The notes below the pieces were generated by a model, which was given only the letters and a program-made list of their open reading frames with translations, ran no database searches and was not told the origin of the DNA. The position numbers and the translations under genes are program-made. DNA of 64,000 nucleotides from Flavobacterium palustre (GTDB lineage: Bacteria > Bacteroidota > Bacteroidia > Flavobacteriales > Flavobacteriaceae), in assembly GCF_014639535.1 (NCBI RefSeq), contig NZ_BMGA01000003.1:1-64000 (forward strand). The letters are read 5' to 3'. The first letter of the stretch is position 1. The number at the start of each line of letters is the position of its first letter. This document shows positions 1,789 to 40,340 of this stretch, piece by piece.

Positions 1789-2700
1789 ATGAAAACAAAA
1801 TTACTACTAATCAGTTTGATGTTTACAGCAGTGATAAGTTATGCACAACAGGATGCACAATTTACACAATACATGTACAACACTATAAATGTAAATCCGG
1901 CTTATGCCGGTTCGAGAGGGGCAATGAGTATATTTGCCTTACATCGCACCCAATGGATTGGATTAGACGGAGCTCCTACAACTAATGCAGTTTCTATCAA
2001 CACACCTTTTAACAATAGTAGATTAGGCTTAGGTGTATCCATTATCAATGATAAAATTGGCCCAACGACAGAAAACACATTATCAGCCGATTTATCATAT
2101 ACCATTCCTACTTCTGAAACTGTAAAACTATCTTTTGGGATTAAAGCTACAGCCAATTTATTTGATTTAGATCCTAATAAACTAAATCCTGAAAACAGTG
2201 GCGATCCTAAATTACAAGGGTTCAACAATAGATTTACACCTAATATTGGAGCTGGAGTTTACCTTCACTCTGACAAAGCTTATGTAGGTTTATCAATACC
2301 TAACTTTATTGAATCAAATCGCTACGATGATAATGATGTGGCGCTCTTTAAAGAAAAAATGACTTACTATTTAATTGCTGGTTATGTTATGGATTTAAGT
2401 TACAACCTTAAATTCAAACCTGCTTTGTTGACAAAAATGGTTCAAGGCTCCCCTTTACAGGTCGATGTTTCGGGTAATTTTATGTTTTTTGACAAATTAA
2501 CCGCCGGTATTGCCTACCGCTGGAGTGCTTCAGTAAGTGCTCTGGTTGGATTTCAAATATCCGACGCTATGTATGTTGGTTATGGATATGATTTAGAAAC
2601 AACCAAATTAGATAATTACAATTCAGGCTCACATGAGATTTTCTTGCGATACGAAATTTTCAAAAACAATAAAAAAATTACAACTCCAAGATTTTTTTAA
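1789..2700 (+). CDS. PorP/SprF family type IX secretion membrane protein
   Basis: 303 residues with a signal peptide (MKTKLLLISLMFTAVISYAQ), directly followed by the family hallmark QDAQFTQYMYNTINVNPAYAGS. The rest is a string of amphipathic beta-strands ending in an aromatic residue (RFF), as in outer-membrane barrels. In Flavobacterium johnsoniae SprF is needed for surface delivery of the adhesin SprB, and PorP-like proteins often pair with one particular adhesin. Here the partner is the adhesin directly upstream. The family call is firm; the pairing is inferred from adjacency. Confidence 0.9.
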   Translation: MKTKLLLISLMFTAVISYAQQDAQFTQYMYNTINVNPAYAGSRGAMSIFALHRTQWIGLDGAPTTNAVSINTPFNNSRLGLGVSIINDKIGPTTENTLSADLSYTIPTSETVKLSFGIKATANLFDLDPNKLNPENSGDPKLQGFNNRFTPNIGAGVYLHSDKAYVGLSIPNFIESNRYDDNDVALFKEKMTYYLIAGYVMDLSYNLKFKPALLTKMVQGSPLQVDVSGNFMFFDKLTAGIAYRWSASVSALVGFQISDAMYVGYGYDLETTKLDNYNSGSHEIFLRYEIFKNNKKITTPRFF

Positions 2701-2776
2701 AGACATATTTAAGTGTCTAAAAAAATGTGAACTCTCAACTTAGTCTGAAATGATTTAAGTAAAAAATGATGAAATC

Positions 2777-3508
2777 ATGACACTTTCAAAAACAATTATT
2801 ATAGAGAATATTATTTTTCTTTACTTAATAATAGCAAGTGTTTTTTCATGCCCTATTTATTCACAAAAAATAAATGCATCTGTTGCCAAAATAAAAGATA
2901 CTATAACAAAATCTTCAACAGACTCAGCAACAATATCTAATTTAGTAAAAACTGTAATATCCTATAAAGTAGTAGAAAAAATCAATATGACATTTGGTGG
3001 TTACACCGTTACCTATGTAGTTTCTGATATAAGTTTAATTAACACAACCGATTTAGGACCAAACAATACCAGAATTGTAACTCCTATTTTTGATATAAAA
3101 AGACAAAATATTAAGACAATAAAAAGACCTGTAATCGACTCATTGAATCTAATGCCTGTAAATTTTGATTCAAATATAACCGTAAATTTTGATATACCTG
3201 AAAAACCTGTATTTGAAGAGATAGATATAAGTAACGGTACTGAATATATTGACATTGTAAAAACCTATGAAAGAGTTGTTGACAAAGGATTCAAATCGAT
3301 AGAAATGTTAAAAAGAATAGCAAACGCATATTATTTCGACAATAAATTAGACAAAGCAGCTAAGTACTATCAGGATCTTTTTAATATGACCACTGATTTA
3401 GAACCTGAATATTATTTTAGATATGCCAAATCTTTAAAATTTATTAATAAACAAGACAAAGCCAATGAAATGATGAAAATATTCAATCAAAAAAACAATG
3501 GTTTATAA
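2777..3508 (+). CDS. Secreted protein with a PorE/SprE-like TPR segment at the C-terminus
   Basis: 243 residues. The N-terminus is hydrophobic and ends SVFSCPIYSQ, resembling the signal peptides of the two following genes. Residues ~30-155 match no family I recognise (rich in Thr, Ile and Asn). The last ~85 residues (from YIDIVKTYERVVDKGF, through NAYYFDNKLDKAAKYYQDLF, to DKANEMMKIFNQKNN) are a TPR-like unit closely matching residues ~37-110 of the OmpA-family protein at 3979. It is one of three short satellites of that TPR region. It may be a periplasmic accessory to the OmpA protein or a duplication by-product. Function unknown. Confidence 0.7.
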   Translation: MTLSKTIIIENIIFLYLIIASVFSCPIYSQKINASVAKIKDTITKSSTDSATISNLVKTVISYKVVEKINMTFGGYTVTYVVSDISLINTTDLGPNNTRIVTPIFDIKRQNIKTIKRPVIDSLNLMPVNFDSNITVNFDIPEKPVFEEIDISNGTEYIDIVKTYERVVDKGFKSIEMLKRIANAYYFDNKLDKAAKYYQDLFNMTTDLEPEYYFRYAKSLKFINKQDKANEMMKIFNQKNNGL

Positions 3509-3548
3509 CTAATTGACATGAAAAGACAAGAATTAAAACCCAATTATT

Positions 3549-3944
3549 ATGAAAAATTATTTAACTGTTTACATGATAATAATAAGTGTTTTTTCATGTA
3601 CTATTTATTCCCAAAATGAAAAAACAATAAATATACCCGATAAAAATAAAGTTGGCTATTCTGACATAGATCCTTTAAAAACCTATGAAAGAGTAATCGA
3701 AAAAGGATACAAATCAGCCGATATGCTAAAAAAAATAGGAAATGCCTATTATTTTAAAGAAGAACTGGACAAAGCGGCTAAATGGTATAAAGAATTGTTT
3801 TCCTTGAGTACCATTACTGATTTAGAACCTGAATATTATTTTAGATACGCCCGATCATTAAAATCTATTAATCAAAATGATGAAGCCAACGAAATGATGA
3901 AAATATTCAATCAAAAAAATGAGGCAAATACCGAAAAAAATTAA
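3549..3944 (+). CDS. Short secreted TPR protein, paralogue of the OmpA protein N-terminus
   Basis: 131 residues: signal peptide (to SVFSCTIYSQ), then one TPR-like block (KTYERVIEKGYKSADMLKK, NAYYFKEELDKAAKWYKELF, EYYFRYARSLKSI, ANEMMKIFNQKN). It stops where the neighbouring OmpA protein continues into PD40 repeats. It lies 41 bp after the previous satellite and 35 bp before the OmpA start. The intact frame and signal peptide argue that it is expressed rather than decaying. Possible small periplasmic partner; function unknown. Confidence 0.75.
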   Translation: MKNYLTVYMIIISVFSCTIYSQNEKTINIPDKNKVGYSDIDPLKTYERVIEKGYKSADMLKKIGNAYYFKEELDKAAKWYKELFSLSTITDLEPEYYFRYARSLKSINQNDEANEMMKIFNQKNEANTEKN

Positions 3945-3978
3945 AACTCCAAAATCCATCCTTCTAAAAACAAATATT

Positions 3979-5916
3979 ATGAAAAAAAATATACTCCTTT
4001 GCGTAGCTATAGTAAGTGTTTTTTCATTCAACATTTATTCTCAGAAAGCTAGTCTGGCATCAGCTGACAAAAAATATGACAGCTATGCCTATATTAATGC
4101 TATTAAAACTTATGAAAGAGTTGTCGAAAAAGGATACAAATCGGCAATACTGTTCCAGAAGTTAGGAAATGCTTATTATTTTAATGCCGAACTGGACAAA
4201 GCGGCTAAATGGTATGGCGAATTATTTGCCATGACTACTGATTTAGAACCTGAATATTATTTCCGCTATTCGCAATCTTTGCGTTCCATTGGCGAAAATG
4301 ATAAAGCCAATGAGATGATGAATCAATTCACTCAATTATCAAACAATGACAACAGAGGGCAATTATTCAAAAAAAATCAGAATTATCTCGATGCAATAAA
4401 AGAGAATTCAGGACGGTACAAAATTGAAAATGCCGGAATCAATTCTAAATATTCCGATTACGGAACAACAATACATGACAACAAAATTTATTTTGCAACC
4501 GCCAGAGATACCGGAAGTTTAGGTCATCGAAAACATTCATGGACTGACCAGTTTTTTACTAATATATACACCGCCGATTTAGGAGATGAAATGACTGCGG
4601 GAAATCCTAAAAAATTCAATCGGTCTATCAATACTAAATTTCACGAAGCTACACCTGCTTTTACAAAAGACGGAAACACAATGTATTTTACCCGTAACAA
4701 CTATCTCGAAGGAAAAAAAGGAAAAGACGGAAACAACGTTAATCTGGTAAAAATATACAAATCCACTTTAGTCGATGGAAAATGGACTAAAACAAGCGAA
4801 TTGCCTTTTAGCAGTGATAATTACAGCACGGCTCATCCTACATTAAGTCCTGACGAAAAAACATTGTATTTTGCTTCGGATATGCCAGGAACATTAGGTC
4901 AGTCGGATATATTTAAGGTTAAAATAAACGAAGATGGGAGTTTTGGAAATCCTGAAAATCTAGGAAATGGAATCAATACTGCCGGACGTGAAACCTTCCC
5001 ACATATAAACGATGAAAACGAACTCTATTTTGCTTCAGACGGACATCCGGGACTGGGTGGTTTAGATATTTTTGTTTCAAAACTAAACCCCAACGGTACG
5101 TTTAATGAAGTTCAAAATATAGGTGCCGACGCCAATTCGCCAAAAGATGATTTTGCTTATGTAATTGATACAAAATCCCGAAGAGGTTTTCTAAGTTCAA
5201 ATAGAGATGGCGGTCAGGGATTTGACGACATCTACAACTTTTTAGAAACCAAAAGACTTATTTGTGAACAGTTACTATATGGTGAAATCACAGATATAGA
5301 AACTAAAATACTATTGCCTGACACAAAACTAAGTTTGTTTGACAGTCAATTTAATCTGATTAGCACCACAACTTCTGACGAAAAAGGAAACTACTCATTT
5401 GCTGTAGAATGCGGAAAAAAATATAGTGTGAGAGCCGAAAAAGAAGATTATACCACTATTGAAGAAAAAGTTACTATTGCAAAAGAAAATGGAAAAACAC
5501 ATTTCCCTCTTGCGCTGGAAAAAGCAAAATGCAAAGTAACTGTGGGTGATGATTTAGGTAAATGTTTTGGTATCAAAATGATTTATTTTGATTTTGATAA
5601 ATCAGATATTCGTGTGGAGGCTGCCATAGACCTTGAAAAAATACTGGATGTTATGAACGAATATCCAAAAATGAAACTTGACATCCGTTCACATACTGAT
5701 AGCCGTGGTTCTTTTAAATACAATGAATCTTTATCAGACAGAAGAGCTAAATCCACCATTGCCTGGCTGATTAAAAACGGAATCAATCCTAACCGATTAA
5801 TTGGAAAAGGATATGGTGAAGGCCAATTGGTAAACCAATGTTCTGACGGAGTAAAATGTACTGAAGAAGAACACCAAATGAATCGTAGAAGCGAATTTAT
5901 TATCACAGCACTTTGA
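3979..5916 (+). CDS. PorE/SprE-like OmpA-family protein (TPR, PD40 repeats, CarboxypepD-reg, OmpA domain)
   Basis: 645 residues. I start it at MKKNILLCVAIVSVFSFNIYSQ, which gives a clean signal peptide; an in-frame ATG 60 bp upstream would spoil it and overlap the previous gene. Order of parts: TPR ~37-110; PD40/WD40-like blades ~165-405 (LSPDEKTLYFASD, INDENELYFASDGHPGLGGLDIF, RRGFLSSNRDGGQGFDDIY); a carboxypeptidase-regulatory-like fold ~425-505; an OmpA peptidoglycan-binding domain ~535-645 (YFDFDKSDIR, RSHTDSRGS, SDRRA). PorE-type proteins with this architecture anchor type IX secretion or gliding parts to peptidoglycan, and copies next to PorP/SprF genes are common. A dedicated partner for the upstream adhesin/PorP pair is inferred. 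It is probably not the core PorE. Confidence 0.85.
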   Translation: MKKNILLCVAIVSVFSFNIYSQKASLASADKKYDSYAYINAIKTYERVVEKGYKSAILFQKLGNAYYFNAELDKAAKWYGELFAMTTDLEPEYYFRYSQSLRSIGENDKANEMMNQFTQLSNNDNRGQLFKKNQNYLDAIKENSGRYKIENAGINSKYSDYGTTIHDNKIYFATARDTGSLGHRKHSWTDQFFTNIYTADLGDEMTAGNPKKFNRSINTKFHEATPAFTKDGNTMYFTRNNYLEGKKGKDGNNVNLVKIYKSTLVDGKWTKTSELPFSSDNYSTAHPTLSPDEKTLYFASDMPGTLGQSDIFKVKINEDGSFGNPENLGNGINTAGRETFPHINDENELYFASDGHPGLGGLDIFVSKLNPNGTFNEVQNIGADANSPKDDFAYVIDTKSRRGFLSSNRDGGQGFDDIYNFLETKRLICEQLLYGEITDIETKILLPDTKLSLFDSQFNLISTTTSDEKGNYSFAVECGKKYSVRAEKEDYTTIEEKVTIAKENGKTHFPLALEKAKCKVTVGDDLGKCFGIKMIYFDFDKSDIRVEAAIDLEKILDVMNEYPKMKLDIRSHTDSRGSFKYNESLSDRRAKSTIAWLIKNGINPNRLIGKGYGEGQLVNQCSDGVKCTEEEHQMNRRSEFIITAL

Positions 5917-29477: not shown

Positions 29478-29485
29478 TATATTTG
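29478..29485 (+). promoter_or_regulatory. -7 box of aguA
   Basis: TATATTTG, 24 bp before the chosen ATG at 29510. A TTG inside this box could be read as an earlier start, which is another reason to prefer the ATG. Confidence 0.55.
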
Positions 29486-29509
29486 CGGTCATTAAATTTT
29501 AGCTTTTTT

Positions 29510-30550
29510 ATGACAACTACAAACAGAAGATTTCCCGCTGAATGGGAAAAACAAGAAGGAATTTTACTTTGTTTTCCGCACAACGGAAACGATTGGCCCG
29601 GAAAATACGAAGCAATCCAATGGGCTTTTGTAGAGTTCATCAAAAAAGTAGCTACTTATGAAAAAGTGTTTTTGGTTGTAATTGATGAAAAACTACAAGC
29701 CAAAGTAAGCGATATGCTCGACAGAGCGAGAGTAAACCTTAAACAAGTTTCATTCATTATCCAAAAAACAAACAGAAGCTGGATGCGTGACTCTGGACCT
29801 ATTGTGGTATATAAGGATGGAAAAAGAGAAGCCTTAAATTTTAACTTCAACGGTTGGGCAAAATACAAAAACTTCCAACTCGACAAACACGTTCCTGCAA
29901 AAGTTGCCGATGCTTTAAATCTTCCGCTAACACAAGTAACATACAAAGGTAAGCCTGTAATTGTAGAAGGCGGCGCGATTGATGTCAATGGACGAGGAAC
30001 TCTATTAACTTCTGAAGAATGTCTGATGCACTCAAGCATCCAGGTACGTAATGCCGGTTTTACCAAAGAAGACTACGAAGCTGTTTTCAAAGAATATTTA
30101 GGTGTGACCAATGTGATTTGGCTGGGCGACGGAATTGAAGGTGACGACACACACGGTCATATTGATGATTTGGCTCGATTTGTAAACGAAGATACGATTG
30201 TAACTATAATAGAAACAGATCCTAATGACGCCAACTACAAACCATTGCAGGACAATTTAAAACGTTTGCAAAATGCTAAACTGGAAGACGGAAAAGCGCC
30301 GATTATTGTGACTTTACCAATGCCGAAACGTTTGGATTTTGAAGATTTGCGTTTACCTGCAAGTTATGCTAATTTCCTTATCTTAAACAATTGTGTTTTA
30401 GTTCCTACATTCAACGATCCTAACGATAGAAAAGCCTTAAATATATTAGCCGAATGTTTCCCTGACAGAGAAATTATCGGCATTAGTGCTATTGATTTAA
30501 TTTGGGGATTTGGAACCTTACATTGTTTAAGTCAACAGATTCCCGAATAA
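29510..30550 (+). CDS. aguA: Agmatine deiminase
   Basis: 346 residues from MTTTNRRFPAEWEKQEG. It converts agmatine to N-carbamoylputrescine and ammonia. Family motifs: AEWEKQEGILLCFPHNGNDW, WMRDSGP, EGGAIDVNGRGTLLTSEECL, DDTHGHIDDLARFV, and the catalytic cysteine in GFGTLHCLSQQ near residue 339. Together with aguB it completes a route from arginine-derived agmatine to putrescine. Confidence 0.94.
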   Translation: MTTTNRRFPAEWEKQEGILLCFPHNGNDWPGKYEAIQWAFVEFIKKVATYEKVFLVVIDEKLQAKVSDMLDRARVNLKQVSFIIQKTNRSWMRDSGPIVVYKDGKREALNFNFNGWAKYKNFQLDKHVPAKVADALNLPLTQVTYKGKPVIVEGGAIDVNGRGTLLTSEECLMHSSIQVRNAGFTKEDYEAVFKEYLGVTNVIWLGDGIEGDDTHGHIDDLARFVNEDTIVTIIETDPNDANYKPLQDNLKRLQNAKLEDGKAPIIVTLPMPKRLDFEDLRLPASYANFLILNNCVLVPTFNDPNDRKALNILAECFPDREIIGISAIDLIWGFGTLHCLSQQIPE

Positions 30551-30797: not shown

Positions 30798-31508
30798 TTA
30801 AATAATGGCTTTATAAAGCATCGCACATAAAATACCGAATCCAAAGCTCAACAAAGTCCCTATCAAAATATATTCAGTCAATCGGACATCTTTGGATTCT
30901 TTTAAATCACCAAATCTGAAAATAGATTTGGCAGCCAATAAAAACCCAATTCCTTCCCAGAAATTAATCATCACAAAAAAGAAAACAAACAACCGTTCTA
31001 AAATCCCTATGTATTTACCGGCATTATTAGTATTTCCGGTATCTGTTTTTATAATTTGCTCGCTCCATTTAGACAACAATACTTTTAAAATAATAGCACT
31101 CACATAAGTCACGGCAACCAAAGCCGTAATCAAAGCTAAACTTTGCTGTGAATACAAACCCGCGATAGCAATTTCGCATGGAAAATAATAAAATACCACC
31201 AAGGCTATCACAGCCAAATGCAACAACTGATCGATAAAAAACCATGATTTTGCCGTTTTCTTTTTTTCTAAATATAATTTGATACAATCAATCCCAAAAT
31301 GACTCAAAGCAATCAAAATTACCGCCGGAAAATATTGTGAACTGAACCGTGTAGTAATAAGCAATAACAGCAAATGCACGCCTACATGACAATACAAATA
31401 TTTAGACCTGACTTTTCTCTTTTTCTTATCGTTGACCCAGGTTGTAGGCTGCAATAAAAAATCACCAATCAAATGAGCCAAAAGCAAACTTAAAAATAAT
31501 ACTACCAT
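30798..31508 (-). CDS. DUF3307 family membrane protein
   Basis: 236 residues, about six transmembrane helices. The conserved N-terminus LLLAHLIGDFLLQPTTWV and the later LSHFGIDCIKLYLE and WFFIDQLLHL are DUF3307 signatures; the His and Asp residues sit at membrane edges. Its start overlaps the end of the satD-like gene by 7 bp, so the two are translationally coupled. These families commonly occur as a pair. Function unknown. Confidence 0.85.
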   Translation of the reverse strand: MVVLFLSLLLAHLIGDFLLQPTTWVNDKKKRKVRSKYLYCHVGVHLLLLLITTRFSSQYFPAVILIALSHFGIDCIKLYLEKKKTAKSWFFIDQLLHLAVIALVVFYYFPCEIAIAGLYSQQSLALITALVAVTYVSAIILKVLLSKWSEQIIKTDTGNTNNAGKYIGILERLFVFFFVMINFWEGIGFLLAAKSIFRFGDLKESKDVRLTEYILIGTLLSFGFGILCAMLYKAII

Positions 31509-32107
31509 TGTTTTTTGATTTGTTGTTTGTAAAATGCAATCATATTTTTTATTTCCTCATAGCCCGCTCTTTTTAGCGAAGCACTTATCGAGCTTTGACT
31601 TTTTCTGTTAAGCACTGTAGCCAATTGGTTTTGATTAATCTCAGGATTTTCAAAAGCTTTTTTAATCACCTCCGCAGATGTACTCGTCCAGTTATCAGCA
31701 ATCATCAGCATAAAAGATAAAATTACTTCAAAAGCAGAATTGAATTCAGCCCAGGGAGTTTGTATGCCTAAGGTTTGTTTTTTCAAACTTTCAAAGCATT
31801 CACCTGAATTAATAAAAGCAGCTCCATTAGATTCGGTCACCTTATCCGCATTATAATCAATACCACCTACACCTATCGCCATCCGTACATCGAGTGCCTT
31901 ATGTTGTTTGACAGTAGCTTTAATCAATAACGCTATCTCAAGTGCGTCTTCGGCCGAAACCAGCAACTGAAAACTGTCTCCCCGATAAATCTCCCAATCT
32001 TTGGGTTCGCTGCCATAACTGTTTAAAACAACCTTTAAATCAGCCAGCCATACTGCTGAAGCTAGTTTTCGGGAATGCATAATATCTCCTGTAATTACTG
32101 CTTTCAT
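31502..32107 (-). CDS. SatD family protein
   Basis: 201 residues from MKAVITGDIMHSRKL; nine codons of open frame upstream are not typical of the family. The N-terminal part has a nucleotidyl-cyclase-like alpha-beta look (EIYRGDSFQLLVSAEDALEI, VRMAIGVGGIDYN). The C-terminal ~60 residues look like a helix-turn-helix (NPEINQNQLATVLNRKSQSS). It heads a two-gene operon with DUF3307 and has three palindromes directly upstream, so it may be an autoregulator. That role is inferred. Confidence 0.8.
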   Translation of the reverse strand: MKAVITGDIMHSRKLASAVWLADLKVVLNSYGSEPKDWEIYRGDSFQLLVSAEDALEIALLIKATVKQHKALDVRMAIGVGGIDYNADKVTESNGAAFINSGECFESLKKQTLGIQTPWAEFNSAFEVILSFMLMIADNWTSTSAEVIKKAFENPEINQNQLATVLNRKSQSSISASLKRAGYEEIKNMIAFYKQQIKKQW

Positions 32108-32124
32108 AATTTTTGATTTTAACG

Positions 32125-32216
32125 CAAGATACAAAAATTATCGTTAAATTAAGCGATAATTAAAAATATCGTTAAATTAAGCGATAATAAATATTATCGT
32201 CAAATAAAGCGATAAT
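32125..32216 (-). promoter_or_regulatory. satD promoter with three phased 24-bp palindromes (candidate operator array)
   Basis: Three copies of ATTATCG-N10-CGATAAT occur at 32137-32160, 32165-32188 (first base pair degenerate: AATATCG) and 32193-32216, exactly 28 bp apart. The N10 spacer is nearly conserved too (TTAAATTAAG in copies 1 and 2). A minus-strand -7-like TATCTTG lies at 32131-32125, 18 bp before the satD ATG, so the array covers the -33 region and beyond. The spacing, symmetry and position fit cooperative repressor or activator binding. Confidence 0.8.
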
Positions 32217-32359: not shown

Positions 32360-34471
32360 ATGTCTTCTAACAATCTCCTACTTACTCCTATCGAATACTT
32401 AAAAGGCGTTGGTCCCAGCCGGGGCGAATTGCTTCGAAAGGAATTGGGGATTCATAAATATGCTGATTTACTCAATTTTTACCCAAATCGTTACATCGAC
32501 CGAACACGTTATTACAAAATCAACGAGTTGCAAAACAATATTGCCGAAGTACAAATCATCGGGAAAATTATCAATATCAAAACAGTAGAATTTGCCAAAG
32601 GCAGAAAACGTCTTGTTGCTACTTTTACAGATGATACAGGTCAAATGGAACTAGTATGGTTTCAGGGACACAAATGGATTCGGGAATCTTTGAAATTAAA
32701 TCAAATCACAGTAATTTTTGGAAAATGTACTTCATTTAACGGCATGTACAATATGGCGCATCCCGAAATCGAATTGCTGAGCGAACACGAACAAAGTTTG
32801 CGTTCGGCTATGCAGGCCGTATATCCTTCGACTGAAACCCTGACCAACCGAGGGATTTCAAATAGAGTGATTAACAAAATGATGCAGCAATTGTTTTTGG
32901 AAACACAGGCTTTGTTTACAGAAACTTTACCTGATTATTTAACTCAGGAGTTAAAATTGATTCCCAAGAACGCTGCCCTATTCAACATCCATTTTCCTAA
33001 AAGTGCCGATGCTTTGAGGAAAGCCCAATTTCGATTAAAATTTGAAGAATTGTTTTTCATTCAGATACAACTGATTATGAAAAACCTGATTCAGAAACAT
33101 AAAATAAAAGGACATCCGTTTACCAAGGTAGGTCAATTTTTCAACGAATTTTACCAAAATCATCTGCCTTTTGAATTGACCAATGCTCAAAAAAGAGTGA
33201 TTAAAGAAATCCGAACCGATATGGGAAGCAATGCCCAAATGAACCGTTTACTGCAAGGTGATGTAGGTTCCGGAAAAACCATTGTGGCCTTTATGAGTAT
33301 GCTTTTGGCAATGGATAATGGATTTCAGGCTTGTCTGATGGCTCCAACAGAAATTCTGGCCAACCAACATTTTTTAGGGCTTTCGGAATTAGCAAACAAA
33401 CTTAACATCAACATCCGAATCCTTACGGGTTCAACCAAAACTTCCGATAGAAAAATTATTCACGAAGAACTGGAAAACGGAACTTTACAAATTCTTATTG
33501 GCACTCATGCCCTACTGGAAGACAAGGTAAAATTCCATAGTTTAGGCTTGGCAATTATAGATGAGCAACATCGTTTTGGGGTAGAGCAACGTTCTAAACT
33601 GTGGAAAAAAAATGATATTCCTCCACATATTTTAGTAATGACTGCCACTCCTATTCCACGAACTTTAGCAATGAGTTTGTATGGTGATTTAGATATTTCG
33701 GTTATTGACGAATTGCCTCCCGGACGAAAACCCATTCAAACCGTGCATCGTTATGACAGCAACCGATTGAAAATCTGGAAATTTATTCGGGACGAAATTG
33801 CTTTAGGTCGCCAAATTTACATTGTTTATCCATTGATTCAGGAATCAGAAAAAATGGATTACAAAGATTTAATGGACGGCTACGAAAGCATTTCAAGAGA
33901 TTTCCCTCTGCCGCAATACGCCGTTTCTATTGTTCATGGCAAAATGAAACCAGCAGATAAAGATGCCGAAATGAAACGCTTTTCCGAGGGAAAAACCAAT
34001 ATTATGGTAGCCACTACGGTAATTGAAGTGGGTGTCAATGTTCCTAATGCTTCGGTGATGATTATCGAAAGTGCTGAACGTTTTGGTCTTTCGCAACTAC
34101 ACCAATTGCGTGGTCGCGTAGGTCGTGGTGCAGAGCAAAGTTATTGTATTTTGATTACCAGCCACAAATTGAGTTCAGACAGTAAAACCCGAATGGAAAC
34201 GATGGTACGCACCAATGATGGTTTTGAAATTGCCGAAGTTGATTTAAAACTACGCGGTCCCGGAAACCTGATGGGAACCCAACAAAGTGGTGTATTAAAT
34301 CTTCAAATTGCAGATATCGTTAAAGACCGCGAAATACTATCACTCGCCCGTGCACATGCCTTGAAAATCCTTTCTGACGATGCACCGCTACAAAAACCGG
34401 AACATGCCGTTTTAAGAGCTGTGTATATGGAATTGACTAAGAAAAAAAATATTTGGAATTACATTAGTTAA
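32360..34471 (+). CDS. recG: ATP-dependent DNA helicase RecG
   Basis: 703 residues, close to the family norm. The N-terminal wedge/OB part includes YLKGVGPSRGELLRKELGI and YADLLNFYPNRYIDR. Helicase motifs: Walker A LLQGDVGSGKT, DEQH box AIIDEQHRFGVEQR, TATPIPRTLAMSLYGDLD, and the C-terminal LHQLRGRVGRG plus TRMETMVRTNDGFEIAEVDLK (split for display). RecG remodels stalled forks and Holliday junctions. No close operon partner. Confidence 0.96.
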   Translation: MSSNNLLLTPIEYLKGVGPSRGELLRKELGIHKYADLLNFYPNRYIDRTRYYKINELQNNIAEVQIIGKIINIKTVEFAKGRKRLVATFTDDTGQMELVWFQGHKWIRESLKLNQITVIFGKCTSFNGMYNMAHPEIELLSEHEQSLRSAMQAVYPSTETLTNRGISNRVINKMMQQLFLETQALFTETLPDYLTQELKLIPKNAALFNIHFPKSADALRKAQFRLKFEELFFIQIQLIMKNLIQKHKIKGHPFTKVGQFFNEFYQNHLPFELTNAQKRVIKEIRTDMGSNAQMNRLLQGDVGSGKTIVAFMSMLLAMDNGFQACLMAPTEILANQHFLGLSELANKLNINIRILTGSTKTSDRKIIHEELENGTLQILIGTHALLEDKVKFHSLGLAIIDEQHRFGVEQRSKLWKKNDIPPHILVMTATPIPRTLAMSLYGDLDISVIDELPPGRKPIQTVHRYDSNRLKIWKFIRDEIALGRQIYIVYPLIQESEKMDYKDLMDGYESISRDFPLPQYAVSIVHGKMKPADKDAEMKRFSEGKTNIMVATTVIEVGVNVPNASVMIIESAERFGLSQLHQLRGRVGRGAEQSYCILITSHKLSSDSKTRMETMVRTNDGFEIAEVDLKLRGPGNLMGTQQSGVLNLQIADIVKDREILSLARAHALKILSDDAPLQKPEHAVLRAVYMELTKKKNIWNYIS

Positions 34472-34725: not shown

Positions 34726-35787
34726 ATGAAAATTAAAAACATCGTTTACGCTTTATTGATTATCGGATTAGGTTCTTTCATTACGTATCGGGTAATGGAA
34801 AACAAAAGTGATTCTGAAAACAACAAAGACAAATCGGATAAAAAAAATCCAATTGCAGTAAATGGAATTGTCATAAAACCAGAGGTTTTTAACAGCAATC
34901 TCTCTTTGTCCGGTTCAATTGAGGCTAATGAACAAGTAGAAATTCGCTCAGAAGTTTCCGGTATTGTAGAAAGTATTCATTTCAAAGAAGGCAGCAACGT
35001 AAGCAAAGGACAATTGCTTTTTAAAGTCAATGATAGCGAATTAAAAGCACAGCTCAGTCAGGCAACAACTAAAGAAAAATTAGCCGCAGAAAATGAACGA
35101 AGAGCCCAACTTTTACTGCAAAAAGAAGCTATTAGTCAGGAAGAATACGATATTGCCAGAGCTGAATATGCTTCAACCAAAGCTCAAAGTCAGTTAATCA
35201 AAGCTCAAATTGCCAAAACTTCGGTAAGAGCACCCTTTTCGGGAAAAATCGGACTGCGTTCCATTTCTCCGGGAACTTACATCACTCCTACTGTTTTGGT
35301 TGCCAAATTAGTCAATATCGAAAAGGTAAAAATCAGCTTTTCAATACCTGAAAAATATGCTGCTCAGGTAAAAATAGGAACCCTAATCGATATCATGGTT
35401 TCGGGAACAGCCAAACCATATACCGCAAAAATATACGCCATAGAACCCGAAGTAGAAATTACAACTCGAACCTTAAAAATTCGTGCTATTGCAGATAACA
35501 CCGATGGAAAACTGTTTCCCGGAACATTTGCTGATGTAAAATTGCCTTTAAACACCATTAATGATGCGATTGTAATTCCTACCGAAGCTATTGTTCCCGT
35601 ACAAGAGGGAAAAAAAGTTTTTATTTCGAATATGGGAAAAGCCAAAGAAGTAATGGTAGAAGCGACCACCAGAACTGATGCTTCAATCCTGATTCTTTCC
35701 GGATTAAATGCTGGAGATACTCTCATAACCAGCGGTGTAATGTCGTTAAAAAATGATGCCCCAATAAAAGTGATCGTTCAAAAATAA
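34726..35787 (+). CDS. RND efflux periplasmic adaptor (membrane fusion protein)
   Basis: 353 residues. N-terminal membrane anchor (VYALLIIGLGSFITYRV), no lipobox. Beta-barrel, lipoyl halves (SGSIEANEQVEIRSEVSGIV and KTSVRAPFSGKIGLRSISPG) and a short coiled-coil hairpin (~95-165) are in the usual order. It joins the inner-membrane pump and the TolC-like duct encoded downstream. The short hairpin is typical of MdtA/AcrA-type drug adaptors. First gene of the tripartite operon. Confidence 0.92.
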   Translation: MKIKNIVYALLIIGLGSFITYRVMENKSDSENNKDKSDKKNPIAVNGIVIKPEVFNSNLSLSGSIEANEQVEIRSEVSGIVESIHFKEGSNVSKGQLLFKVNDSELKAQLSQATTKEKLAAENERRAQLLLQKEAISQEEYDIARAEYASTKAQSQLIKAQIAKTSVRAPFSGKIGLRSISPGTYITPTVLVAKLVNIEKVKISFSIPEKYAAQVKIGTLIDIMVSGTAKPYTAKIYAIEPEVEITTRTLKIRAIADNTDGKLFPGTFADVKLPLNTINDAIVIPTEAIVPVQEGKKVFISNMGKAKEVMVEATTRTDASILILSGLNAGDTLITSGVMSLKNDAPIKVIVQK

Positions 35788-35860
35788 AGGTTTTGAATTA
35801 TGGGTTTTGAGTTTTCAAAATCGAAAATCTGAAGTCTAAAATCAAAAATCTGCCATCACA

Positions 35861-38800
35861 ATGAGTTTATCCACCACCAGCATAAGAAGACCTGTTTTAA
35901 CCATAGTACTAAACCTTTTAATTATATTGTTTGGTATAATAGGCTATACTTTTTTAGGAGTTCGTGAATTTCCATCAATTGATCCGGCTCAGGTTTCTAT
36001 TCGTACCAATTATACAGGAGCCAATTCGGATATTATTGAATCCCAAATTACCGAACCACTTGAAAAAGCGGTCAATTCAATTGACGGTATCCGAAACATT
36101 ACTTCTTCCAGTAATCAGGGAAGCAGTATTATTACCATTGAATTTAATTTAGACAAAGACCTTGAAAGCGCTGCCAATGATGTGCGTGACAAAGTCTCTC
36201 AGGCCGTTAGGAATTTACCAAAAGACATCGACGCTCCTCCGGTAGTTTCTAAAGCTGATGCCGATAGTGAGTCTATCATTTCTATGACGCTTCAAAGTGA
36301 CCGCAGAAATTCATTAGAATTAAGCGATTATGCCGAAAATGTCATTTCACAACGATTAGAAACGATTCCGGGAGTTAGCGGCGTTCAAATTTGGGGACAA
36401 AAACGCTATGCCATGCGTTTGTGGATTGACCCCGTAAAATTAGCCGCTTATGGCTGTACTGTTGCCGAAGTTCGCGATGCCTTAAATGCACAAAACGTAG
36501 AACTGCCTTCCGGAAAATTAACAGGAAACAATACCGAATTAGCGGTAAAAACAATTGGAAACCTTTCCAGTGCCGAAGAATTCAATAACATTATTATTAA
36601 AACTGATGGAGATAAAATTGTTCGTTTTAGTGATATAGGAAACGCCAGTCTGGGTGCCGAAAATATCGAAACCCAAATGACACAATCAGGACTACCAATG
36701 ATTGGTATGGCTATTGTTCCTATGCCGGGAGCCAATTATTTAGATATTTCTGAAGAATTTTATAAAAAATACGAAGCCTTAAAAAAAGATTTACCTGAAG
36801 ATATCCAACTCAACATTGCATTGGACAACACCGCTTTTGTCAAAAAATCAGTACTGGAAGTTGCCGAAACATTAGGGATTTCGATTATTCTGGTTATCAT
36901 AATAATCTACTTATTTTTTAGAGACTGGGCCATTGCATTCAGACCTTTAATTGACATTCCGGTTTCGTTGATTGCTACCTTTTTTATCATGTGGCTTTTC
37001 GGTTTTTCAATAAACGTACTGACACTTTTAGCCATTGTTTTGGCCACCGGACTTGTAGTTGATGACGGAATTGTAGTTACCGAAAACATTTTCAAAAAAG
37101 TCGAAGAAGGCATGTCGCCTATCGAAGCTGCGATAAAGGGTTCTAACGAAATTTTCTATGCGGTAATTTCAATTTCAGTCACCCTGGCGGCGGTTTTTTT
37201 ACCTGTTATTTTCTTAGAAGGATTCGTAGGGCGGCTTTTCCGGGAATTTGGTGTTGTTATTGGTGCTGCGGTACTAATATCGGCTTTTGTGGCTTTGACT
37301 TTAACGCCAATGCTAAATGCATATTTAATGAAAGGCGGCGAACAAAAAAAATCCAATTTTTATATTAAAACCGAACCTTTTTTCGAAAAATTAAATAGCG
37401 GTTATACTAATTCGTTAAAAGCTTTTATGGATAAAAAATGGATTAGCTTTCCCATTTTGATTAGCTGTTTTGGAATCATTTATTTATTCTACACTTTACT
37501 GCCAAAAGAAACGGCACCTTATGATGATCGTAGTTCGGTAACCATGCGTATGACCACTCCTGAAGGTGCTACTTATGAATACACCGATCGTTTTATGCAG
37601 GAAATTTCAAAATTAGTTGATGATTCTATTCCGGAGAAAAAAGTAAGTTTAGTCATTACATCTCCCGGATTTAGTTCGGCTTCAATTAATAGTGGATTTA
37701 TCAGACTCACCCTGAAAGATGTCAGCGAAAGAGAAGCTTCTCAAAAAGATATTGCCGATAAATTATCCAAATGGACTAAACAATATCCTAATGCTAAAAC
37801 ATCGGTTATTCAACAGCCAACAATTGCCGTAAACAGACGTGGTGGTTTACCAATTCAATATATTATTCAGGCTCCAACATTCGAAAAACTGCGTGAAAAA
37901 ATTCCGGTTTTTATGGAAGAAGTGGGAAAAAGTGATGTTTTTTCAATTACCGATGTCAATTTAAAATTCGACAAACCCGAAATCAATGTAACTATCGACC
38001 GTAACAAAGCCGAAAGTTTAGGTATTTCGATACTTGATATTGCCCAAACATTACAACTTTCCTTAAGCGGGCAACGTTTTGGTTATTTTATTAAAAACGG
38101 CAAACAGTATCAGGTTATTGGTCAATTTGATCAAAAAGACCGTTCGAAACCGCTGGATTTGACTTCTATATTTGTTAAAAACAACAAAGGCGAATTGATT
38201 CAGATGGACAATGTGGTCAGTGTGGAAGAACAAAGTAATCCGCCGCAATTGTATCACAACAATCGCTACATGTCGGCAACGGTTTCAGCCGGTCTCGCTC
38301 CGGGCAAAAGTATCAGCGACGGAATTGATGCCATGAACGAAATAAAAGCCAAAGTACTTGATGATAGCTTCACCACTGATTTAGGTGGAGAATCCAGAGA
38401 TTTTGTCGAAAGTAGCTCGAATACCTCTTTCGCTTTCGGACTCGCTTTATTATTAATTTTCCTGATTTTAGCAGCTCAATTTGAAAGTTTTGTTGATCCT
38501 TTCATCATCATTCTTACCGTACCAATGGCAGTTGCGGGAGCTTTATTTTCATTATGGTTATTTGACCAAACCTGGAATATTTTTAGCCAGATTGGAACGG
38601 TAATGCTTATTGGATTAGTAACCAAAAACGGTATTTTAATTGTTGAATTTGCCAATCAATTGCGCGAACAGGGAAAATCAAAATACGATGCTATTATGGA
38701 AGCTTCCGAAGCTCGTTTAAGACCTATTTTAATGACCAGTTTAGCCATTGCCCTGGGAGCTTTACCTATCGCATTATCGCTGGGGGCGGCTTCTACCAGC

Positions 38801-38965
38801 AGAATTGGAATGGGAGTTGTAATTGTAGGGGGAACTATTTTTTCTTTAATACTAACTTTATTTATTATTCCGGCGCTTTATTATATGTGGTCCAGAGCTA
38901 AGAAACATTATCCTGAATTTGACCGTATTGACGAATATGAAAAAGCAAGTAAATCGCAGATTTAA
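35861..38965 (+). CDS. RND efflux inner-membrane pump (AcrB/MdtB type)
   Basis: 1034 residues, HAE-1 length. Twelve transmembrane segments around two large periplasmic loops. Proton-relay Asps are in TGLVVDDGIVVTENIFKKVE. Other hallmarks: VREFPSIDPAQVSIRTNY, TFSIN-type FGFSINVLTLLAIVLA, and the second-half ALSLGAASTSRIGMGVVIVGG. Uses proton motive force to export drugs or other amphiphiles. The gene lies 73 bp after the adaptor; substrate not predictable. Confidence 0.94.
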   Translation: MSLSTTSIRRPVLTIVLNLLIILFGIIGYTFLGVREFPSIDPAQVSIRTNYTGANSDIIESQITEPLEKAVNSIDGIRNITSSSNQGSSIITIEFNLDKDLESAANDVRDKVSQAVRNLPKDIDAPPVVSKADADSESIISMTLQSDRRNSLELSDYAENVISQRLETIPGVSGVQIWGQKRYAMRLWIDPVKLAAYGCTVAEVRDALNAQNVELPSGKLTGNNTELAVKTIGNLSSAEEFNNIIIKTDGDKIVRFSDIGNASLGAENIETQMTQSGLPMIGMAIVPMPGANYLDISEEFYKKYEALKKDLPEDIQLNIALDNTAFVKKSVLEVAETLGISIILVIIIIYLFFRDWAIAFRPLIDIPVSLIATFFIMWLFGFSINVLTLLAIVLATGLVVDDGIVVTENIFKKVEEGMSPIEAAIKGSNEIFYAVISISVTLAAVFLPVIFLEGFVGRLFREFGVVIGAAVLISAFVALTLTPMLNAYLMKGGEQKKSNFYIKTEPFFEKLNSGYTNSLKAFMDKKWISFPILISCFGIIYLFYTLLPKETAPYDDRSSVTMRMTTPEGATYEYTDRFMQEISKLVDDSIPEKKVSLVITSPGFSSASINSGFIRLTLKDVSEREASQKDIADKLSKWTKQYPNAKTSVIQQPTIAVNRRGGLPIQYIIQAPTFEKLREKIPVFMEEVGKSDVFSITDVNLKFDKPEINVTIDRNKAESLGISILDIAQTLQLSLSGQRFGYFIKNGKQYQVIGQFDQKDRSKPLDLTSIFVKNNKGELIQMDNVVSVEEQSNPPQLYHNNRYMSATVSAGLAPGKSISDGIDAMNEIKAKVLDDSFTTDLGGESRDFVESSSNTSFAFGLALLLIFLILAAQFESFVDPFIIILTVPMAVAGALFSLWLFDQTWNIFSQIGTVMLIGLVTKNGILIVEFANQLREQGKSKYDAIMEASEARLRPILMTSLAIALGALPIALSLGAASTSRIGMGVVIVGGTIFSLILTLFIIPALYYMWSRAKKHYPEFDRIDEYEKASKSQI

Positions 38966-39029
38966 TTTAACAAACCGATAGCTTTAAAAAGCTTTGGAGT
39001 TAAAAAATAATTTATAGCAACCATTTTCT

Positions 39030-40340
39030 ATGAGAACTACATCTATTATAAAAAGTCTGTTTGTATTGCTGTTTTGCATCGCAAATGCAAATGCACAGCA
39101 AATCCTGACTATTGAAGAAGCACTAAAAACAGCATTAGAAAACAATTACGAAATTAAAATTGCGGCTAACAATTTAGAAGTAAATAAAACCAATAATGCC
39201 ATTGGTAATGCCGGAATGCTTCCAACACTAACAGCCAATTTAGTTGATAATAATAACATTCAAAATCTATCGCAAACTCGTTTAGACGGAACGGAAAACA
39301 GTTTAAATAACGCAAAAAACAATAGTCTGAATTACGGTGTAAGTTTAGGTTGGACTATTTTTGACGGTATGAGTATGTTTGCCAAAAGAGAGCAATTGCA
39401 GGAACTTCAAAAACTGGGAGAATCACAATTAAAACTGAATATTCTAACTAAAATTGCCGATGTTTATGCTACCTATTTTGATTTAGTACAACAACAGCAG
39501 CAATTAGCCGCTTTAGACTCTACTCTGGTTATTTCTAATCAACGATTAGCCTTAGCGCAAAACCGTTTTAGCATAGGCAAAGCATCAAAACTGGAAGTTT
39601 TAAATGCACAAGTGGATTTGAACACCGACAAAGTGACGCTGTTAAAACAAAAAGAATTGTTTTTGAATACTAAAATTCTTTTGAACCAAATATTAGCACG
39701 AAACACCAAAACGGATTTTAAAGTAAATGCTGTTTTCACAGTAGATTCCAATTTAAAATTAGCCGAATTGAACGAATTGGCTCAAAAACAAAATCCACAA
39801 TTACAAGCACAAATTATCAATAAAAGAGTTGCCGAACTGCAACTAAAACAAGTAAAAGCAAGTCGATATCCTACCGTAAGACTAACCACAGGTTATAATT
39901 TTAGTGAAACAGAATCCAGTTTAGGATTTGTTACCCAGTCTTCTTCAAGAGGATTCAATTATGGTTTTAATGCTTCATTGAATCTGTTTGATGGCTTTGC
40001 CCAACATCGAAATGAGAAAATTGCTAATCTGGCTATTGAAAATGCCAAAATACAAATTGAACAACAAAATCTAAATCTGGAAACCCAACTGGCAACTGCT
40101 TATCAAACGTATTTAACAAATTTAGAACTGATTGAACTGGAAAAAACAAACCAAACCATTGCCAAACAGAATCTGTCAATTACTTTAGATAAATTCCATA
40201 TTGGCACCATAACCACTTTAGAATTCAGGACTGCGCAATTAAATTTTGTTAACGCAACCGTACGTTATACTAATGCACAATATCAGGCTAAATTATCGGA
40301 GATTGCATTAAAAGAATTGGCAGGAAATATTAGTTTTTGA
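39030..40340 (+). CDS. TolC-family outer-membrane efflux protein
   Basis: 436 residues. Signal peptide ending ANAQ, then the internal duplication of OEP domains: ILTIEEALKTALENNYEIKI, LGWTIFDG and again GFNYGFNASLNLFDGFAQH, each followed by long helices. Third gene of the RND operon; it forms the duct through periplasm and outer membrane. Confidence 0.92.
   Translation: MRTTSIIKSLFVLLFCIANANAQQILTIEEALKTALENNYEIKIAANNLEVNKTNNAIGNAGMLPTLTANLVDNNNIQNLSQTRLDGTENSLNNAKNNSLNYGVSLGWTIFDGMSMFAKREQLQELQKLGESQLKLNILTKIADVYATYFDLVQQQQQLAALDSTLVISNQRLALAQNRFSIGKASKLEVLNAQVDLNTDKVTLLKQKELFLNTKILLNQILARNTKTDFKVNAVFTVDSNLKLAELNELAQKQNPQLQAQIINKRVAELQLKQVKASRYPTVRLTTGYNFSETESSLGFVTQSSSRGFNYGFNASLNLFDGFAQHRNEKIANLAIENAKIQIEQQNLNLETQLATAYQTYLTNLELIELEKTNQTIAKQNLSITLDKFHIGTITTLEFRTAQLNFVNATVRYTNAQYQAKLSEIALKELAGNISF

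What the first reader, a model, noticed from the sequence alone, without database searches (positions are those of the whole stretch)
32125..32216. Three 24-bp palindromes at an exact 28-bp period upstream of a SatD/DUF3307 operon
ATTATCG-N10-CGATAAT occurs three times at offsets of exactly 28 bp, next to a -7-like box, ahead of a gene whose C-terminus looks like a helix-turn-helix. The spacer is conserved too, so each 24-bp unit is under constraint. It looks like a cooperative operator array and suggests that this poorly understood SatD/DUF3307 pair is a self-controlled module. The regulator may be the SatD protein itself.
Basis: partly seen in the sequence, partly recalled or inferred. Interest (0 to 1): 0.8.

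Follow-up and report, generated by a model that had tools for sequence, protein, structure and literature searches.

The report
SatD controls its own operator array
Three evenly spaced mirror-image DNA sites in front of an uncharacterised gene pair are very probably binding sites for the first gene's own protein, and comparing many bacteria shows which amino acids of that protein read which bases.

Summary
In detail: TATCG-N10-CGATA occurs three times at exact 28-bp steps upstream of satD-DUF3307, and the array occurs nowhere else in the 3.97-Mb genome. The architecture is family-wide. Of 234 distinct Bacteroidota satD upstream regions, 187 pass an array criterion, 168 at 28 bp and 19 at 29 bp; other periods from 20 to 40 give three loci, shuffles none, and 490 kb of flanking DNA none. 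The half-site core changes between lineages, in step with SatD's own C-terminal helix-turn-helix. With phylogeny simulated, the five best co-varying columns of 166 are 176, 173, 172, 177 and 170, all in or at the start of the recognition helix. Residue 176 follows classic pairing: Glu with C (55 of 58), Gln with A (46 of 48), Arg/Lys with G of the opposite strand (30 of 31). So SatD very probably binds this array and controls its own operon; repression and cooperativity are inferred. DUF3307 directly follows satD in 230 of 235 loci. SatD's N-domain resembles class III nucleotide cyclases, both metal aspartates conserved, not confirmed by fold search. Eight literature searches showed no description of this.

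The parts
32137..32160 (.). operator 1 (nearest satD), core TATCG-N10-CGATA 32139-32158
32165..32188 (.). operator 2, core 32167-32186
32193..32216 (.). operator 3, core 32195-32214
32124..32131 (-). -7-like box TATCTTGC (near, not equal to, the recalled Bacteroidota consensus TAnnTTTG)
   Evidence: the same string stands before satD in 9 of the 10 nearest named loci L033-L042, L035 having TATATTGC (read)
31502..32107 (-). satD-like gene, 201 aa: N-terminal cyclase-like domain plus C-terminal helix-turn-helix; the proposed autoregulator
   Evidence: PF16264, 22.8 bits, below the curated cut-off of 29; AF2 mean pLDDT 95.3; HTH families in up to 22 of 50 relatives
31568..31597 (-). recognition helix, residues 171-180; 176 is the main specificity residue
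32084..32086 (-). Asp8, aligned with the first metal-binding Asp of class III cyclases
   Evidence: D in 228 of 229
31976..31978 (-). Asp44 of RGDSFQ, aligned with the second metal-binding Asp
   Evidence: D in 229 of 229
30798..31508 (-). DUF3307 gene, overlaps the satD end by 7 bp; second gene of the pair; membrane protein judging by its hydrophobic sequence (no topology prediction run)
   Evidence: (PF11750, 106.3 bits, cut-off 23)
32360..34471 (+). recG, divergent neighbour; not thought to belong to the module

Best explanation
The array is a tandem operator for SatD itself. SatD binds each 20-24 bp palindrome, presumably as a dimer, through its C-terminal helix-turn-helix. Residue 176, helped by 170, 172, 173 and 177, reads the core bases just inside the outer TAT. 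In the loci where a promoter box is recognisable, the operator nearest the gene mostly overlaps it, so binding should shut off the satD-DUF3307 operon: negative autoregulation. The fixed 28 (or 29) bp step sets neighbouring dimers at a defined distance and angle (about 2.7 turns), which suggests side-by-side assembly. The N-terminal cyclase-like domain would be the switch that frees the promoter when it binds or makes a nucleotide. SHOWN by computation: the array, its conservation and uniqueness, the recognition code, gene linkage, promoter overlap in part of the set. INFERRED: dimer binding, repression rather than activation, cooperativity, the nucleotide switch, and what DUF3307 does.
For: Array criterion met with best period 28 in 168 and 29 in 19 of 234 upstream regions; periods 21, 26 and 30 give one locus each; Markov-shuffled upstreams 0. 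Without any palindrome criterion the best direct-repeat period is 28 in 175, 29 in 22, 56 in 11 of 234; shuffles give 28 in 32 of 1170. Flank control 0 in 490,446 bp against 72 of 80. Of 174 variable SatD columns, 176 best predicts operator similarity after correction for N-domain identity (r 0.535; next 173, 170, 172; 14,588 pairs of 40-70% N-domain identity); partial Mantel operator-HTH given N-domain 0.199, 0 of 200 permutations, operator-N-domain given HTH -0.035. Traits simulated on an N-domain tree: top 5 of 166 columns are 176 (z 8.5, 0 of 400), 173, 172, 177, 170. At 176: Glu with C at dyad position 7 in 55 of 58; Gln with A at position 6 in 46 of 48; Arg/Lys with C at position 5 (G opposite) in 30 of 31. 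Five helix residues predict the core between proteins under 45% identical in the N-domain: similarity 0.482, against 0.329 for nearest by N-domain and 0.310 random (columns chosen on the same data). TAnnTTTG at or after the last operator in 85 of 186, shuffled 12; in 64 of the 85 it overlaps that operator (offsets +8, +6, -3, -4). DUF3307 adjacent in 230 of 235. Arrays end in whole palindromes, flanking half-sites at random level (0.29-0.32 against 0.31; up to 171 arrays). Beyond the phylum, 28 or 29 is the best period in 6 of 11 plasmid-borne satD records looked at.
Against: No binding or expression data. The distance-corrected test on 93 path-disjoint pairs ranks 176 first and 173 second of 171, but p = 9e-4 does not survive Bonferroni. 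Background columns also score above zero in the simulation (median z 1.65), so that null is somewhat weak. Single palindromes are mostly imperfect: only 31 of 234 loci have two centres of at least 7 of 8 matches at lag 28. The operator finder rewards TAT/ATA flanks, so the near-invariance of TAT is partly selection; sites without TAT exist (L016, L018, L163, L165, L196) and mostly failed the cut. 47 of 234 loci fail the array criterion. TAnnTTTG is absent in 101 of 186 loci and in the window. The array lies 143 bp from recG, so an effect on recG is not excluded.
Confidence: 0.82

Rival explanations
1. SatD binds the array but activates its own promoter, or does both, rather than simply repressing it.
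For: In 13 of 186 loci the box starts 35-36 bp after the last centre, where an activator could sit.
Against: In 64 of the 85 loci with a box, the operator overlaps the box itself, which favours occlusion.
Confidence: 0.1
2. A different regulator, encoded elsewhere, binds the array and controls satD-DUF3307 or recG.
For: Nothing found for it; a genome-wide search for other candidate regulators was not made.
Against: The operator core follows SatD's own recognition helix with classic residue-base pairs, over at least 69 core-class changes and 47 changes at residue 176 by parsimony on the N-domain tree. The array goes with satD and not with the flanks.
Confidence: 0.03
3. The repeats act as RNA: hairpins in a leader, or a repeat RNA as in type III toxin-antitoxin systems; symmetric changes would then be compensatory pairs.
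For: Each unit could form a hairpin of about 7 bp; symmetry is kept while letters change. RNA folding of the array was not run.
Against: Where a promoter-like box is found it lies inside or downstream of the last unit, so the array would not be transcribed with satD. A hairpin gives no reason to follow the recognition helix.
Confidence: 0.03
4. The array is a centromere- or iteron-like site of a plasmid-type element left in the chromosome.
For: Evenly spaced palindromes next to their binding protein; satD-DUF3307 also rides on small plasmids.
Against: The pair holds no partition ATPase or replication protein by Pfam; on pEC34A other annotated genes serve replication control and mobilisation.
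Confidence: 0.02

Closest known systems
SatD (PF16264; secretion and acid tolerance gene D of Streptococcus mutans)
   Same: 39 of 50 relatives match the Pfam model at E up to 10, best 6.8e-13; similar length
   Different: The window protein scores 22.8 bits, below the cut-off of 29. In the passages read (PMC11323703) satD is linked to acid tolerance in S. mutans and called essential in S. pyogenes Tn-seq studies; DNA binding is not mentioned there. Streptococcal upstream regions were not examined.
Class III nucleotide cyclases (PF00211), incl. cyclase-like families such as DUF2652 (PMC4886424: outline with abstract and passages read)
   Same: hhalign score 32.4, P 1.2e-4, against at most 20.9 in 100 column-shuffled controls; Asp8 and Asp44 fall on the two metal-binding aspartates in the extended alignment; the order of strands and helices in the AF2 model fits in my reading
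   Different: Probability only 54.9; fold search could not be run; purine-selecting and transition-state residues not established; fused to a helix-turn-helix
Autoregulated operons with tandem palindromic operators (e.g. phage repressors, toxin-antitoxin operons; recalled)
   Same: Regulator gene first, operator near or over its promoter, several spaced palindromes
   Different: Step fixed at 28 or 29 bp while the recognised letters turn over freely; regulator carries a cyclase-like domain
Pycsar / CBASS / Panoptes nucleotide-signal defence systems (recalled)
   Same: Cyclase-like protein next to a membrane protein; one copy lies beside a gene annotated as Pycsar system effector on a Sphingomonas plasmid
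   Different: No PADLOC match for either protein at E up to 0.1; the three tblastn queries found no phage record, though one jumbo phage is reported to have a DUF3307-like ORF (passage of PMC8504454)

Membership tests
Autoregulated operon with tandem operators | Palindromic sites directly upstream of the regulator's own gene, absent elsewhere | tested here: met
   (uniqueness tested in the own genome and in 490 kb of flanks, not in whole relatives)
Autoregulated operon with tandem operators | Operator sequence co-varies with the regulator's DNA-reading residues | tested here: met
   not significant after correction in the strictest pair test
Autoregulated operon with tandem operators | Operator overlaps the promoter | tested here: inconclusive
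   85 of 186 loci have TAnnTTTG at or after the last site (shuffled 12), 64 of them overlapping it; the window has only a near-match
Autoregulated operon with tandem operators | Protein binds the DNA and lowers expression | not testable with these tools
   needs EMSA/footprint and reporter assays
SatD (PF16264) | Pfam score above the curated cut-off | tested here: inconclusive
   window protein 22.8 against 29 bits; relative in G037 30.9, over the cut-off; 39 of 50 relatives match at E up to 10
DUF3307 (PF11750) | Pfam score above the curated cut-off | tested here: met
   106.3 against 23 bits; 45 of 45 relatives match
Class III nucleotide cyclase | Two metal-binding aspartates | tested here: met
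   D8 in 228 of 229, D44 in 229 of 229, aligned with the cyclase aspartates
Class III nucleotide cyclase | Significant family-profile match | tested here: inconclusive
   hhalign probability 54.9, P 1.2e-4; no cyclase family among the 25 of 73 families shown in the Pfam scan of 50 members
Class III nucleotide cyclase | Catalytic fold by comparison with solved structures | not tested
Class III nucleotide cyclase | Makes a cyclic nucleotide | not testable with these tools
   needs an enzyme assay
Known anti-phage defence systems (PADLOC) | Match to a PADLOC model | tested here: not met
   0 families for the window SatD and DUF3307 at E up to 0.1

The most novel reading that the evidence does not exclude
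SatD-DUF3307 is a two-gene nucleotide-signal module in which the cyclase-like protein is at once the enzyme or nucleotide sensor and the repressor of its own operon, and DUF3307 is the membrane effector. It would be a mobile stress- or phage-response system that keeps itself silent through a 28-bp SatD assembly and has evolved private operator codes so that copies do not cross-regulate.
Probability: 0.2. Interest if true: 0.87.

Novelty: new variant of a known kind. Interest (0 to 1): 0.7.

Why it matters
It gives a first concrete function to SatD, which the papers seen here know only from an acid-tolerance operon name and essentiality screens, and ties it to DUF3307. It also offers an unusually clean natural data set of a DNA-recognition code: one operator layout, one main specificity residue with nine amino acids seen in four or more loci, 186 natural protein-operator pairs. 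It makes directly testable whether a cyclase-like domain can gate a repressor, and what a 28-bp step is for.

Tried and rejected
Rejected: exact-motif searching as the test of conservation (the core changes between lineages); the RNA hairpin and unlinked-regulator readings (see rivals); reading the array as CGATA-N8-TATCG units (midpoint dyads give lag 42 in 24 loci), because arrays of three or more units end in whole N10 palindromes with flanking half-sites at random level. GGDEF as closest relative of the SatD N-domain gave only probability 5.3, P 0.007; the GGDEF-against-cyclase control itself gave 1.6. HMMER against solved structures gave nothing convincing (best E 0.098, in the HTH part). 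No match in 50,697 phage records for the window SatD, the Vibrio SatD or the pEC34A DUF3307. Two DNA queries, from the Enterobacter locus and from pEC34A, found nothing in the E. coli genome collection.

Literature: eight searches, several with capped lists (40 of 319, 6 of 554 and 6 of 125 papers listed), showed no paper on SatD as a DNA-binding protein or on DUF3307 function. PMC8504454 only lists a DUF3307-like phage ORF (passage); PMC10326533 only assigns the name SatD (passages); PMC11323703 passages.

Dropped before counts: of 257 loci (23, 80, 30, 24 new, 100), 256 gave a SatD hit, 235 distinct proteins, 234 with usable upstream DNA. The co-variation analysis uses the 186 with a confident array; one search counts 187 by a near-identical criterion. 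The '20 pairings' printed are one and the same pairing because the tree is binary, so it counts once. Asp8/Asp44 were counted on 229 proteins (ATG start, no X). Near-identical relatives were kept unless the protein was identical; the named set is the best 80, not a random sample.

Mended on checking: confidence lowered from 0.88 to 0.82 and rival odds trimmed, because operator-promoter overlap was seen directly in only 64 of 186 loci and the odds must add up; a supposed broken satD in L108 was withdrawn (the requested stretch simply ran past a stop; the same contig shows an open frame of 197 aa without inner stops).

Full report
WHAT IS THERE. The window is part of a Flavobacterium-like genome (the nearest named SatD relatives are from Flavobacterium). 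Between divergent genes satD (31502-32107, minus) and recG (32360-34471, plus) lie three palindromes TATCG-N10-CGATA at exact 28-bp steps. The gene after satD, overlapping it by 7 bp, encodes a DUF3307 protein. The array is unique in the 3.97-Mb genome: the two-unit pattern with up to three mismatches hits only here, and the six other single palindromes all lie inside open frames of 233 codons or more.

IT IS FAMILY-WIDE. satD homologues were collected from Bacteroidota: matches in 22 of 60 near relatives, 238 of 397 family genomes, 93 of 395 phylum genomes, and the 80 best of 586 confirmed named loci. After collapsing identical proteins 234 upstream regions remained. With no palindrome assumption, the best direct-repeat period is 28 in 175, 29 in 22 and 56 in 11 of 234; in 1170 shuffles it is 28 in 32. 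With palindrome plus repeat criteria, scanning periods 20 to 40, the best period is 28 in 168 and 29 in 19; other periods give three single loci and shuffles none. The three-unit criterion finds no array in 490,446 bp flanking 80 of these genes, against 72 of 80 in front of satD. Most confident arrays have three units (127 of 186; 2 to 7 seen). Single palindromes are often imperfect: with 7 of 8 matched pairs required at both centres, 31 loci show lag 28. 47 of 234 loci fail the criterion, among them all six fetched loci of one unnamed family, f32 (L207, L210, L211, L212, L215, L218; scores).

THE LETTERS CHANGE, THE SPACING DOES NOT. In the confident set the outer TAT of each half-site is nearly invariant, partly because the finder rewards it; sites without TAT exist (L016, L018, L163, L165, L196). 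The next three bases differ between lineages: CTG, TAG, CGG, TAC, AAG, CGT, CGC, ATG, TCC, GCC and others. This turnover allows a test of who reads the site.

SATD READS IT. For each of 174 variable SatD columns I asked how well residue identity predicts operator-core similarity after removing the effect of N-domain identity (14,588 pairs of 40-70% N-domain identity). Column 176 stands out (r 0.535), then 173 (0.217), 170 (0.195) and 172 (0.146); partial Mantel for the HTH given the N-domain is 0.199 (0 of 200 permutations), for the N-domain given the HTH -0.035. With each column simulated along a tree built from the N-domain only, the five highest z-scores of 166 columns are 176 (8.5), 173 (5.8), 172 (5.1), 177 (4.6) and 170 (4.4). 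They lie in, or one residue before, the predicted recognition helix 171-180 (AF2, mean pLDDT 95.3). The code at 176 is chemically sensible (pairings recalled): Glu with C in 55 of 58, Gln with A in 46 of 48, Arg/Lys with G on the opposite strand in 30 of 31. Asn at 173 goes with T or A at dyad position 6, Ser or Thr with G (mean frequencies). Helix matches predict the core even between proteins under 45% identical in the N-domain (0.482 against 0.329 and 0.310, columns chosen on the same data). Against: in 93 path-disjoint pairs with distance correction, 176 and 173 are still the top two of 171 columns, but p = 9e-4 does not survive correction for 171 columns, and the simulation null is somewhat weak (median z 1.65).

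ACROSS PHYLA. satD-DUF3307 pairs also occur on plasmids of Proteobacteria. Of 11 plasmid-borne satD records looked at, 28 or 29 is the best period in six: Vibrio lentus (28, 32 of 40 matches, three TTAGCC..GGCTAA palindromes), two Pseudoalteromonas and two Salinivibrio records (28, 26 of 40) and E. coli pEC34A (29, 25 of 40). It is not the best in Enterobacter and Klebsiella LR890364 (29 second, 22), Pseudomonas fragi, Sphingomonas and Segatella. No shuffle control was run for these 11. By my own hand alignment residue 176 is Lys in the Vibrio, Salinivibrio, Pseudoalteromonas and enterobacterial proteins, whose sites carry CC/GG, as the code would have it; this was not run as a formal test.

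HOW IT PROBABLY WORKS. In 85 of 186 loci a TAnnTTTG box (recalled Bacteroidota consensus) stands at or after the last operator, shuffled 12; in 64 of the 85 it overlaps that operator (offsets +8, +6, -3, -4) and in 13 it starts 35-36 bp after the centre. In the window the near-match TATCTTGC begins 17 bp after the last dyad. So binding should block the promoter; in a minority activation would be possible. 28 bp is about 2.67 turns, so successive sites turn by about a third of a circle and three sites span 84 bp or 8 turns; neighbours would meet along a spiral, not on one face. That is geometry, not evidence of cooperativity.

WHAT SATD AND DUF3307 ARE. The SatD N-domain matches class III cyclases in profile comparison (score 32.4, P 1.2e-4, probability 54.9; best of 100 column-shuffled controls 20.9), and the extended alignment puts conserved Asp8 and Asp44 on the two metal aspartates. 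DUF3307 directly follows satD in 230 of 235 loci and has residues invariant over 45 sequences that include H12, D16, H41, H70, D74 and H97. On the 3.77-kb E. coli plasmid pEC34A the pair is the only annotated cargo besides a short hypothetical protein and plasmid functions (PLSDB's gene table is incomplete), which hints at a selfish or protective role. PADLOC has no match for either.

VERDICT. Observation confirmed, interpretation supported and sharpened: a dedicated, family-wide SatD operator array with a readable recognition code. The kind (autoregulated operon) is known; this regulator, its fused cyclase-like domain, the fixed step and the code were not seen in the papers searched.

Noticed in passing
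L275 (NC_019077.1, 3,770 bp), L277 (NZ_LR890364.1, 4,424 bp): satD-DUF3307 is nearly the only annotated cargo of tiny Rop-type plasmids of E. coli and Klebsiella, suggesting a mobile, self-contained trait.
   Followed up: partly
L281 (NZ_CP048421.1, Sphingomonas insulae plasmid), 1983-4348: satD-DUF3307 lies next to genes annotated as Pycsar system effector family protein and E2 domain-associated cysteine-rich protein, a defence-like neighbourhood.
   Followed up: no
L188, L197, L199, L200, L216, L219 upstream of satD: A second class of arrays has an exact 29-bp step; which protein feature sets the step was not worked out.
   Followed up: partly
L207, L210, L211, L212, L215, L218: All six fetched SatDs of one unnamed Bacteroidota family (f32) lack an array in front of the gene.
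   Followed up: no
window 30798-31508: DUF3307 has invariant His and Asp residues (H12, D16, H41, H70, D74, H97) and a conserved C-terminal block; it may be a membrane metalloprotein.
   Followed up: partly
window 29483-30550 and 34726-40340: Neighbours look ordinary: a Porphyromonas-type peptidylarginine deiminase family protein, and, by its translations only, an RND efflux operon with an outer membrane factor (no family search run on it).
   Followed up: no
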